Of a stretch of 64,000 nucleotides of DNA, positions 18,416-25,190 are shown piece after piece. Position 1 is the stretch's first letter. Every line of letters starts with the position of its first letter. Position numbers and translations under genes: made by a program. The notes under the pieces are model-generated. The model had not been told where the DNA came from and ran no database searches. It was given only the letters and a program-made list of their open reading frames with translations. Source of the stretch: Alloalcanivorax dieselolei B5 (GTDB taxonomy: Bacteria; Pseudomonadota; Gammaproteobacteria; Pseudomonadales; Alcanivoracaceae); contig NC_018691.1 of NCBI RefSeq assembly GCF_000300005.1, positions 3,410,001-3,474,000 on the forward strand, read 5' to 3'.

Positions 18416-18505
18416 TGGCGGAGAGGGCGGGATTCGAACCCGCGATACGGTTACCCATATGGTTCCTTAGCAGGGAACTGGTTTCAGCCACTCACCCACC
18501 TCTCC
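18416..18505 (-). tRNA. tRNA-Ser(GCU)
   Basis: The 90-base gene reads GGAGAGGTGGGTGAGTGGCT at its 5' end. The anticodon stem is GTTCC/GGAAC around the loop CTGCTAA, so the anticodon is GCT (18469-18471). A long variable arm follows, as in class II serine tRNAs, then GGTTCGAATCC in the T arm and an encoded 3' CCA. The acceptor stem GGAGAGG pairs with CCTCTCC. The position beside csrA is common in gammaproteobacteria. It decodes AGC/AGU serine codons. Confidence 0.95.
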
Positions 18506-23860: not shown

Positions 23861-23934
23861 CCACTGTAGGAGCTTGCCCTGCAAGCGAATTCTTTTCGGG
23901 TCTTGGTGCCCTCAATTCGCTTGCAGGGCAAGCT
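23861..23934. repeat. REP inverted pair, right arm interrupted by the IS110 element
   Basis: The left arm (23861-23892, CCACTGTAGGAGCTTGCCCT..) is mirrored by AATTCGCTTGCAGGGCAAGCT (23914-23934). The mirror stops abruptly at 23934. The missing remainder, CTCCTACAGTGGCTTCG, resumes at 25132-25148 on the far side of the transposase gene. Joining 23934 to 25134 restores a full palindromic partner of the left arm. The inner 23768-23860 gap shows nothing else. Confidence 0.85.
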
Positions 23935-23944
23935 TGTATGGTTT

Positions 23945-24130
23945 CCCGGCAAGTCTTAGAAAGAAAAGACTTGTCGGGGTGGAGGGACCAAGCAAGCTTC
24001 TGACCCTAGGGTACAGACTGTGGGAGATATGGCCCCACCCCGCACCTTCAAACGCCGATAAGGAATCCATCGGCTGAGCGCACACTCAGACCGACGATAC
24101 TCTGCAAGCCAGCGTTACGGTGCGCCCCGA
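23945..24130 (+). ncRNA. Predicted IS110 bridge RNA (bounds approximate)
   Basis: The left non-coding end can be folded by eye into three parts. A 5' hairpin pairs 23945-23957 with 23966-23978 (one G-U). A target-binding loop is closed by GGGGTGG (23976-23982) / CCACCCC (24035-24041), with an inner hairpin around ACCCTAGGGT (24003-24012). A donor-binding loop is closed by CGCACC (24041-24046) / GGTGCG (24119-24124). Inside the target loop, GCAAGCT (23992-23998) equals the target left side and core (23928-23934). CTGTGGGAG (24018-24026) is complementary to the right side CTCCTACAG (25132-25140) with a single G-T wobble. The donor guides are weaker: GAATC (24063-24067) and ATAC (24097-24100) match the element ends next to the core. 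Confidence 0.75.
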
Positions 24131-24164
24131 CAAGCCCATTTAACCTAGCTGACAGGGGTGCCCC

Positions 24165-25109
24165 ATGGCAATGCCGGCAAGCCGCCCGGAGATCGGGATT
24201 GATGTGGCCAAAGACGACCTGGTGATTCACCTCCAGGACCTGAACCAAACCGTCACCATCGACAATACCCCCCAGGCCATCCGCCAATGGCTGGCCACCC
24301 TCCCCAAGGGCTGCGATATCGCCATTGAGGCGACCAGCACCTATCACCTGGACATTACCGAGCGCGCACACGCCAAGGGCCACCGGGTCTATGTGGTGGA
24401 CGGCTACCGCCTCAGCAACTACCGCAAAGGCGTTGGAGGGCGGGCCAAGACGGATCTGGCCGATGCCCAGTTGCTGGCCCGCTATCTGCGCAGGGAGAAA
24501 GACGAGTTACGCCCATGGAGCCCACCCCCAAAGGCGTACCGGGTGCTGCAGAGCCTGCTGCGTCGCCGCGCCGCCTTGGTTAAGGCCCGCACGGCATTAC
24601 GCCAGAGCCTGAGCGGAGAACCGGAGCTCAAGGCCCCGCTACAGGCCCTGATCGCCGAAATGGACCGGATTGACACTCTGATCCAGAAACGGCTCAAGAG
24701 TGCGGTGAGGGCCGCAGGCTTACAGACCCAGGTCCAACGCTGCGACGCCATCGATGGGGTCGGCGAGCTCACCGCCACCGCCTTGGTCATGGCCTTCCTG
24801 AGAGGGGACTTCAAGAACAGCGATGCCTTCGTGGCCTTCCTGGGGCTGGATGTCCGAGTGCGTGACTCTGGTAAACTCACAGGCAAGCGTAAGCTGACCA
24901 AGCAAGGGGATACCGAGGTCAGGCGACTGCTGCACTGTGCCGCCATGAGTGCCTCTCGACACCCGGTCTGGCGCGCCTTCTATCAGCGCTATCGGGATCG
25001 GGGACTGCACACCACCCAAGCCTTGGTGATCCTGGCCCGGAAGATCGCCCGCACCGCCTTCACCCTGATGAAGCAGCAACAAGAATATTGCCCCGCAAAG
25101 CTCTTTTAA
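24165..25109 (+). CDS. IS110-family transposase (DEDD recombinase)
   Basis: The 314-residue recombinase has an N-terminal RuvC-like domain with DEDD acidic residues: Asp in EIGIDVAKDDLV, Glu in DIAIEATSTYHLD and the Asp pair in GRAKTDLADAQLLARYLR. The C-terminal transposase_20 domain includes CDAIDGVGELTATALVMAF, a Gly-rich DSGKLTGKRKLTKQGDTEVRR stretch, and LLHCAAMSASRHPVW with the conserved Ser used for catalysis in this family. The gene is full length, so the element may be active. It works with a bridge RNA, predicted here in the 5' non-coding end. Confidence 0.93.
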   Translation: MAMPASRPEIGIDVAKDDLVIHLQDLNQTVTIDNTPQAIRQWLATLPKGCDIAIEATSTYHLDITERAHAKGHRVYVVDGYRLSNYRKGVGGRAKTDLADAQLLARYLRREKDELRPWSPPPKAYRVLQSLLRRRAALVKARTALRQSLSGEPELKAPLQALIAEMDRIDTLIQKRLKSAVRAAGLQTQVQRCDAIDGVGELTATALVMAFLRGDFKNSDAFVAFLGLDVRVRDSGKLTGKRKLTKQGDTEVRRLLHCAAMSASRHPVWRAFYQRYRDRGLHTTQALVILARKIARTAFTLMKQQQEYCPAKLF

Positions 25110-25112
25110 GCA

Positions 25113-25118
25113 TTGCAG
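25113..25118 (+). promoter_or_regulatory. -35 half of a split junction promoter (with -10 at 23937-23942)
   Basis: TTGCAG lies near the right end of the IS and TATGGT (23937-23942) near the left end. In the linear copy they are 1.2 kb apart in the wrong order. When the ends join through one CT core, as in an excised circle, they become a -35/-10 pair with a 17-base spacer, reading into the bridge RNA and the transposase. Such junction promoters are known for IS110-type circles; here the pair is inferred from spacing and from moderate matches. Confidence 0.45.
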
Positions 25119-25190
25119 GACACCATAGAATCTCCTACAGTGGCTTCGTAGCGGACTGTGAATGCGGGCCTTCAAGGTCCGTGCTTTGGC

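What the first reader, a model, noticed from the sequence alone, without database searches (positions are those of the whole stretch)
23935..24164. IS110 element with a readable bridge RNA whose guides match its own insertion site
Within the 230-base non-coding left end I can pair a 5' hairpin, a target loop closed by GGGGTGG/CCACCCC and a donor loop closed by CGCACC/GGTGCG. In the target loop GCAAGCT (23992-23998) repeats the left target plus core. CTGTGGGAG (24018-24026) is complementary to the right target CTCCTACAG, with one G-T wobble. This is the IS621 bridge-RNA plan, found here with a natural REP target still in place, so guide and target can be compared directly.
Basis: partly seen in the sequence, partly recalled or inferred. 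Interest (0 to 1): 0.78.

Follow-up and report, generated by a model that had tools for sequence, protein, structure and literature searches.

The report
IS110 jumping gene with bridge RNA
This is a small bacterial jumping gene of a known type that carries its own guide RNA, and the guide spells out the repeat sequence into which the element has inserted, as it also does, fully or in part, in related copies in other genomes.

Summary
An IS110-group element (23935-25131, 1197 bp, CT core on both sides) lies in a REP palindrome. Its 230-nt left end reads as an IS621-type bridge RNA: left guide GCAAGCT equals left target plus core; right guide CTGTGGGAG pairs with CTCCTACAG with one G-T wobble. 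A Markov control gave both in 4 of 200,000 sequences. The genome has four copies, all in REPs at the same point. Across 36 copies from 18 genomes, guides track targets: LT positions 3-6 matched 88/120 against at most 66 in 20,000 shuffles, RT positions 10-14 71/75 against at most 65. In one relative all 13 copies, carrying two left guides, fit their own guide better. Across 23 left ends 16 of 29 stem pairs show two-sided changes, though the window sequence folded alone gives those stems weakly. Mechanism, REP targeting and natural redirection are already published: a new member of a known kind. Less expected: the right guide is perfect for the REP type of sister genomes and uses the local type by wobble; and a conserved segment 3' of the donor loop can pair with the RNA's base.

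The parts
23864..23891 (-). inverted partner REP upstream of the occupied REP
23914..23934 (+). left half of the occupied REP, ending in left target GGGCAAG plus core CT (23933-23934)
   Evidence: 171 uninterrupted GCAAGCTCCTACAG sites elsewhere in the genome
23935..25131 (+). IS110-group insertion sequence, 1197 bp
   Evidence: four copies with the same two ends
23945..23978 (+). 5' hairpin of the bridge RNA, 13 bp (23945-23957/23966-23978)
   Evidence: pair probability 0.76-1.00
23976..24041 (+). target-binding loop; stem 23976-23985/24033-24041 with bulged A at 23983; apical hairpin 24000-24016
23990..23998 (+). left target guide AAGCAAGCT; 23992-23998 matches left target plus core
24018..24026 (+). 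right target guide CTGTGGGAG, pairs with 25132-25140, one G-T wobble (target position 12)
24027..24028 (+). putative target-loop handshake bases AU, complementary to donor positions 7 and 6
   Evidence: read from the sequence; scheme from PMC11208158 (passages)
24041..24124 (+). donor-binding loop; stems 24041-24046/24119-24124 and 24052-24055/24112-24115; apical hairpin 24070-24094
24060..24067 (+). left donor guide AAGGAATC; 6 of 8 identical to the right end ATAGAAT plus core C
   Evidence: read by eye
24097..24108 (+). right donor guide AUA-CUCUG-CAAG, discontiguous pairing with donor CTTGTAT
   Evidence: read by eye; discontiguous right donor guide described for IS621 (passages)
24125..24134 (+). 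CCCCGACAAG, complementary to 23970-23979, just 3' of the donor loop
   Evidence: 198 of 230 cells pair across 23 left ends; slid controls at most 0.52
24165..25109 (+). IS110 DEDD/Tnp recombinase, 314 aa
   Evidence: Pfam PF01548 and PF02371, NCBIfam NF033542 above cut-off, ISCro4 and IS621 chains
25132..25140 (+). second core CT and right target: CTCCTACAG

Best explanation
An IS110-group insertion sequence whose left end encodes a bridge RNA. Inferred working, by analogy with IS621: excision makes a circle joined at the CT core; the RNA is transcribed from the left end and bound by the DEDD/Ser recombinase. The left target guide (23990-23998) reads the bottom strand of the 3' arm of a REP hairpin and the right target guide (24018-24026) reads the top strand of the REP's CTCCTAC tail, while the donor loop reads the element's own joined ends. 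Strand exchange at CT then inserts the element into a REP. Shown here by sequence: the element, four copies at the same REP position, a conserved RNA architecture, and guide-target agreement beyond shuffled guides. Inferred: transcription, RNA-protein complex, circle and recombination.
For: Recombinase family and aligned catalytic residues. Four of four copies lie in REPs at the same base with the same ends. Guide-target permutation tests: LT 3-6 88/120 against mean 42.6 and max 66; RT 10-14 71/75 against mean 48.9 and max 65; 0 of 20,000 each. Right targets CTCCTAC, CTCCCAC, CTCACAT, CTCATCG and CTCAGTG go with changed right guides that pair 6 or 7 of 7. In G013, 13 of 13 copies fit their own left guide better than the other (by 3 in 10 copies, by 1 in L042, L058, L060). 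Nine copies with identical left end lie at nine loci. Structure.
Against: No RNA, circle or recombination data. Stems of the two loops are weak in the single-sequence fold. Left guides of L043, L045, L046, L053, L088, L090, L094 and L095 agree only in part with their targets, and L058 and L060 sit at targets one base longer than the guide. L097 and L098 were given a one-base hand shift; without it the LT 3-6 test still gives 84/120 against max 65. A sigma-70-like promoter across the joined ends was not clear: the best score in the window element was reached by 51 of 300 shuffles. Shuffles ignore relatedness of the copies.
Confidence: 0.93

Rival explanations
1. The recombinase protein alone recognises REPs, and the guide-like stretches in the left end are chance or a captured piece of REP.
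For: REPs are targets of IS elements of five families, among them IS3, IS4, IS256 and IS5 (PMC1525189, passages).
Against: Both guides in order arise in 4 of 200,000 Markov sequences; guides of relatives change together with targets, 0 of 20,000 shuffles.
Confidence: 0.03
2. The left-end RNA is mainly a regulator of transposase translation (structured 5' leader or antisense target, as reported for ISPpu9) and targeting is secondary.
For: ISPpu9, also REP-borne, has a structured tnp 5' leader controlled by small RNAs (PMC8450116, abstract). The window element has a conserved segment beyond the donor loop that can pair with the base of the RNA.
Against: A purely regulatory role does not predict guide-target covariation. 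Regulation and guiding are compatible.
Confidence: 0.03
3. Guides copy the target after insertion (the site writes the guide), so the match is a consequence and not a cause.
For: Guide and target agree within individual genomes and copies.
Against: Nine G013 copies with identical left ends lie at nine places. Nine of the eleven CGAC-guide copies sit at CGAC-GCT sites; of the first 100 listed (of 470 counted, 78 in the backward control) VNNNNGCTCCTACR sites of that genome only 6 are of that class (counted by hand, forward strand only).
Confidence: 0.01

Closest known systems
IS621 (IS110 group, E. coli), bridge-RNA recombinase (PMC11208160, PMC11208158; passages)
   Same: Recombinase domains and aligned catalytic residues, CT core, REP target, long left non-coding end with 5' hairpin, target loop and donor loop, guide scheme, discontiguous right donor guide.
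   Different: Distant by sequence (phmmer 83 bits, E 2.2e-22); left end 230 nt against 191 bp; the window copy's left guide matches from LT position 3 on; right donor guide read here with a 5-nt bulge (two flipped-out bases in IS621); an extra conserved segment follows the donor loop. The IS621 RNA letters themselves were not compared.
ISCro4 transposase (PDB 9t56)
   Same: Best solved-structure match by sequence (85 bits, E 5.3e-23).
   Different: Its bridge RNA was not compared here.
ISEc21 / ISMch6 and ISEc11 / ISXne4 seekRNA pairs (PMC11187229; passages)
   Same: Natural redirection: relatives with altered guide bases at altered targets.
   Different: Here two guides of one element lineage coexist in one genome (G013), each with its own REP subclass.
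ISPpu9, ISPpu10, ISPa11 (REP-borne elements of Pseudomonas)
   Same: All copies of each associated with REPs (7/7, 7/7, 6/6 in PMC1525189; passages).
   Different: Other hosts and REPs; sequences not compared here. PMC11187229 counts ISPa11 among IS1111 members.

Membership tests
IS110 family, IS110 group | DEDD_Tnp_IS110 plus Transposase_20 domains | tested here: met
   81.5 bits against cut-off 29 and 65.0 against 21.3; NF033542 203.6 against 140
IS110 family, IS110 group | Catalytic D, E, D, D and a Ser in the Tnp domain | tested here: met
   D13, E55, D97, D100, S235 (positions) align with the corresponding residues of IS621 in the HMMER alignment. D102 and S241 of IS621 are named in PMC11208158; the other catalytic assignments are recalled.
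IS110 family, IS110 group | Long left non-coding end upstream of tnp, short right end | tested here: met
   230 nt left, 22 nt right
IS110 family, IS110 group | CT core at both ends, fixed insertion point | tested here: met
   4 of 4 own copies
IS110 family, IS110 group | No long subterminal inverted repeats (an IS1111 feature) | not tested
   Only a short ATA near the right end and TAT near the left end were read by eye
Bridge RNA system | 5' hairpin and two stem-loops with internal guide loops, conserved by covariation | tested here: met
   16 of 29 pairs with two-sided change for the two loops; the 5' hairpin was judged by single-sequence folding only
Bridge RNA system | Target guides covary with insertion sites | tested here: met
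Bridge RNA system | Donor guides covary with donor ends | tested here: inconclusive
   Donor ends vary little; L090 shows a changed right end (GAGC) with a changed left donor guide (GAGC), read by eye
Bridge RNA system | Promoter rebuilt at the joined ends | tested here: inconclusive
   In 14 of 16 elements more than 15 of 300 shuffles scored as well
Bridge RNA system | RNA expressed, bound by recombinase, directs recombination | not testable with these tools
   none

The most novel reading that the evidence does not exclude
In this lineage the bridge RNA has an added switch: the segment just 3' of the donor loop (24125-24134) competes with the 5' hairpin and the target-loop stem for the same strand (23970-23979), so that a longer transcript (the tnp mRNA leader) cannot take the guide fold while the shorter RNA can. 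The same lineage also keeps pace with drifting REPs by G-T wobble and by small left-guide changes.
Probability: 0.15. Interest if true: 0.55.

Novelty: new member of a known kind. Interest (0 to 1): 0.38.

Why it matters
It supports the published bridge-RNA rules from natural copies: guides within one lineage, and even within one genome, have diverged and the insertion sites follow. It also gives a natural case of a guide meeting a changed host repeat. The right guide is perfect for CTCCCAC, the tail seen at 17 of 17 further right ends from sister strains and one MAG (the guides of those copies were not seen because their left ends are not in the loci) and more frequent than CTCCTAC in three relatives (CCCAC:CCTAC 226:55, 99:34, 25:1), whereas in the window's genome the ratio is 23:171 and all four insertions use CTCCTAC through one G-T wobble. 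Tolerance of rG-dT at target position 12 is thus a concrete, testable prediction. The element and its relatives are also candidate programmable recombinases, of a known type.

Tried and rejected
Rfam gave no family over this region at gathering scores (only a tRNA elsewhere in the window). Plasmids held no relative at E 1e-50 and 16 records at 1e-20, the 15 listed being 29.7-32.0% identical; the close-relative scan of viral contigs found none. A promoter at the joined ends could not be told from shuffles in 14 of 16 elements. Single-sequence folding did not confirm the two loop stems. No exact empty site was found in relatives: the orthologous stretches of G029 and G018 lack the element but carry other REPs; in G028 the left flank was not in the same locus. 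Rows dropped before counting: L040 and L041 (same places as L065 and L066, from another collection), L067 and L050 (truncated, no left end), L068 (no left end found), L069 (28% relative, right end not found), L070 (25% relative, fell outside the 1e-20 limit of the script); L071-L087 have right ends only and are counted apart. L053 has no right target because its right side reads N, so right-target work uses 35 of 36 copies. Not run: covariance-model build, structure prediction, comparison with the IS621 RNA letters, test for long subterminal repeats.

Full report
The element. The window holds a 314-aa IS110 recombinase at 24165-25109 (PF01548 and PF02371; NF033542 above its cut-off; best solved-structure matches ISCro4 and IS621). 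Its 230-nt left end and 22-nt right end give a 1197-bp element, 23935-25131, with CT on both sides. The genome (one contig, 4.93 Mb) has four copies: three identical, one with 8 differences. All four lie at the same base of a REP, with the same last 7 bases on the left (GCAAGCT) and first 9 on the right (CTCCTACAG). The Tnp domain PF02371 was found in this genome at these four places only (E <= 0.001). The nearest named relatives are Alcanivorax sp. 24 and A. hongdengensis (92 and 91%), so the host is taken to be of that family. The window copy lies between genes, in the second REP of an inverted pair.

The RNA. Both guides in order arise in 4 of 200,000 Markov sequences. Folded alone, the RNA gives the 5' hairpin and both apical hairpins strongly but the closing stems of the two loops only at probability 0.07-0.26. 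94.2% of cells pair; 16 of 29 pairs have two-sided changes; none of 500 shuffles reaches four of the five measures, and 19 of 500 reach the fifth (further pair types); slid versions pair at most 49.2%.

Guides and targets. I tabulated 36 copies with a left end, from 18 genomes including the window's own (dropped rows are listed under Tried and rejected). They come from family, order and class searches: 8 of 46 genomes at 1e-30, 7 of 390 and 8 of 369 at 1e-50, the window's genome being in each and others overlapping. Collapsed to 30 distinct guide-target pairs, LT positions 3-6 match 88 of 120, against a shuffle mean of 42.6 and maximum of 66; RT positions 10-14 match 71 of 75 over 15 distinct pairs, against 48.9 and 65; 0 of 20,000 shuffles each. 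Shuffles ignore relatedness, so these are not exact probabilities. By position, LT 3 to 6 are 0.60-0.80 against 0.29-0.44 expected, position 1 is 0.77 against 0.49, position 2 is 0.43 against 0.32, position 9 equals expectation (0.33), and positions 7-8 hardly vary.

Within-genome tests. G013 has 13 copies with two left guides, CGACGC and AGGTGC. L055 and L048 differ at 31 of 1193 alignment columns, three of them in the left guide. All 13 fit their own guide better than the other, by 3 bases in 10 copies and by 1 in L042, L058 and L060; L058 and L060 sit at CGACCGCT, one base longer than the guide. Of the first 100 VNNNNGCTCCTACR sites listed for that genome (470 counted, 78 in the backward control), 6 are CGAC-GCT, yet 9 of 11 CGAC-guide copies sit at such a site (counted by hand). 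G456 has two copies whose guides differ at one left position (CCTTGGC, CCCTGGC) and whose targets differ in the same way. In the window's genome, copy L054 has one guide change (A to G at element position 57); it matches its own target at 9 of 9 left positions, the other three copies at 7 of 9. Copies that agree only in part: L043, L045, L046, L053, L088, L090, L094, L095.

Wobble and host. The right guide GTGGGAG is perfect for CTCCCAC. Seventeen of seventeen further right ends (five from Alcanivorax sp. 24, eleven from Alloalcanivorax xenomutans, one from a MAG) read CTCCCAC; their own guides were not seen. In the genus, exact 14-base sites with CCCAC:CCTAC number 226:55 in G018, 99:34 in G028, 25:1 in G029 and 23:171 in the window's genome; six of the 13 genomes have neither, and three have 3-5 CCCAC and no CCTAC. 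All four window-genome insertions use CCTAC by one G-T wobble. With 171 of 194 sites of that type this is what abundance predicts; it shows tolerance, not preference. PMC11208160 (passages) reports that 74.5% of IS621 insertion sites in an assay were of a sequence with one guide mismatch.

Donor loop. Left donor guide AAGGAATC against ATAGAATC (6 of 8) and right donor guide AUA-CUCUG-CAAG against CTTGTAT (7 of 7 with a 5-nt bulge), both read by eye, fit the IS621 scheme, in which nine RNA bases pair discontiguously with seven donor bases. Donor ends barely vary, so covariation is untested except for L090.

An extra segment. CCCCGACAAG (24125-24134), just 3' of the donor loop, is complementary to 23970-23979, most of which (to 23978) is also the 3' arm of the 5' hairpin. 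Over 23 left ends 198 of 230 cells pair, slid versions at most 52%; among 11 distinct pairs 12 of 20,000 shuffles do as well. Folded alone, the window element does not use it (probability 0.00), while L052, L091, L096 and L090 do (0.62-0.81). IS621 has a 191-bp left end and an RNA of about 177 nt, so it has little room for such a segment. Function is conjecture.

What is known. Bridge RNAs, the guide scheme, REP targeting by IS621 and guide-target covariation over thousands of elements are in PMC11208160 and PMC11208158 (passages; section 7 of the latter). Natural redirection is in PMC11187229 (passages). REP targeting by IS110-family elements in Pseudomonas is in PMC1525189 (passages). Searches for Alcanivorax with IS110 (four papers, listing only) and for bridge RNA with IS110 (listings) showed no title on this element in the open library; subscription journals are mostly not covered. 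Verdict: real, well supported by comparison, a new member of a known kind.

Noticed in passing
window 24125-24134 with 23970-23979: Segment 3' of the donor loop complementary to the base of the RNA, conserved in most of 23 left ends and competing with the 5' hairpin and the target-loop stem.
   Followed up: partly
G013 copies L055 and L048, element position 95: The second base after the right guide (second handshake base) is C in copies with the CGACGC guide and T in copies with the AGGTGC guide, changing together with the left guide; I found no pairing partner that explains it.
   Followed up: no
left guides of the 66-67% identity group (L042-L046, L048, L049, L052, L053, L055-L064): The guide base opposite the core T is A instead of T, so the core T is not paired by the left guide in these elements.
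   Followed up: no
L090 left end and right end: Changed right end (ATAGAGC-CT) with a correspondingly changed left donor guide (GGAGC): one natural example of donor-guide covariation.
   Followed up: partly
L100, orthologous locus in G029: A REP-like stretch there reads TTGCAGGGCACCATCGAAGCTCCCGCAG, resembling the element's right end (TTGCAGGGCACCATAGAATCT) fused to a REP tail; possibly a decayed remnant or chance.
   Followed up: no
L077-L087 (Alloalcanivorax xenomutans JC109): Eleven contig edges carry the 3' end of the element, suggesting many copies that broke the assembly.
   Followed up: partly
window element position 57 (23991), copy L054: One of the four copies has A to G in the left guide and matches its target at 9 of 9 left positions, against 7 of 9 in the others.
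   Followed up: partly
window 24165-25109: The recombinase also gives a weak match, below cut-off, to the TIGR-Tas RNA-guided endonuclease model (24.7 bits against 100).
   Followed up: no
window 18419-18505: A tRNA gene on the minus strand (Rfam).
   Followed up: no
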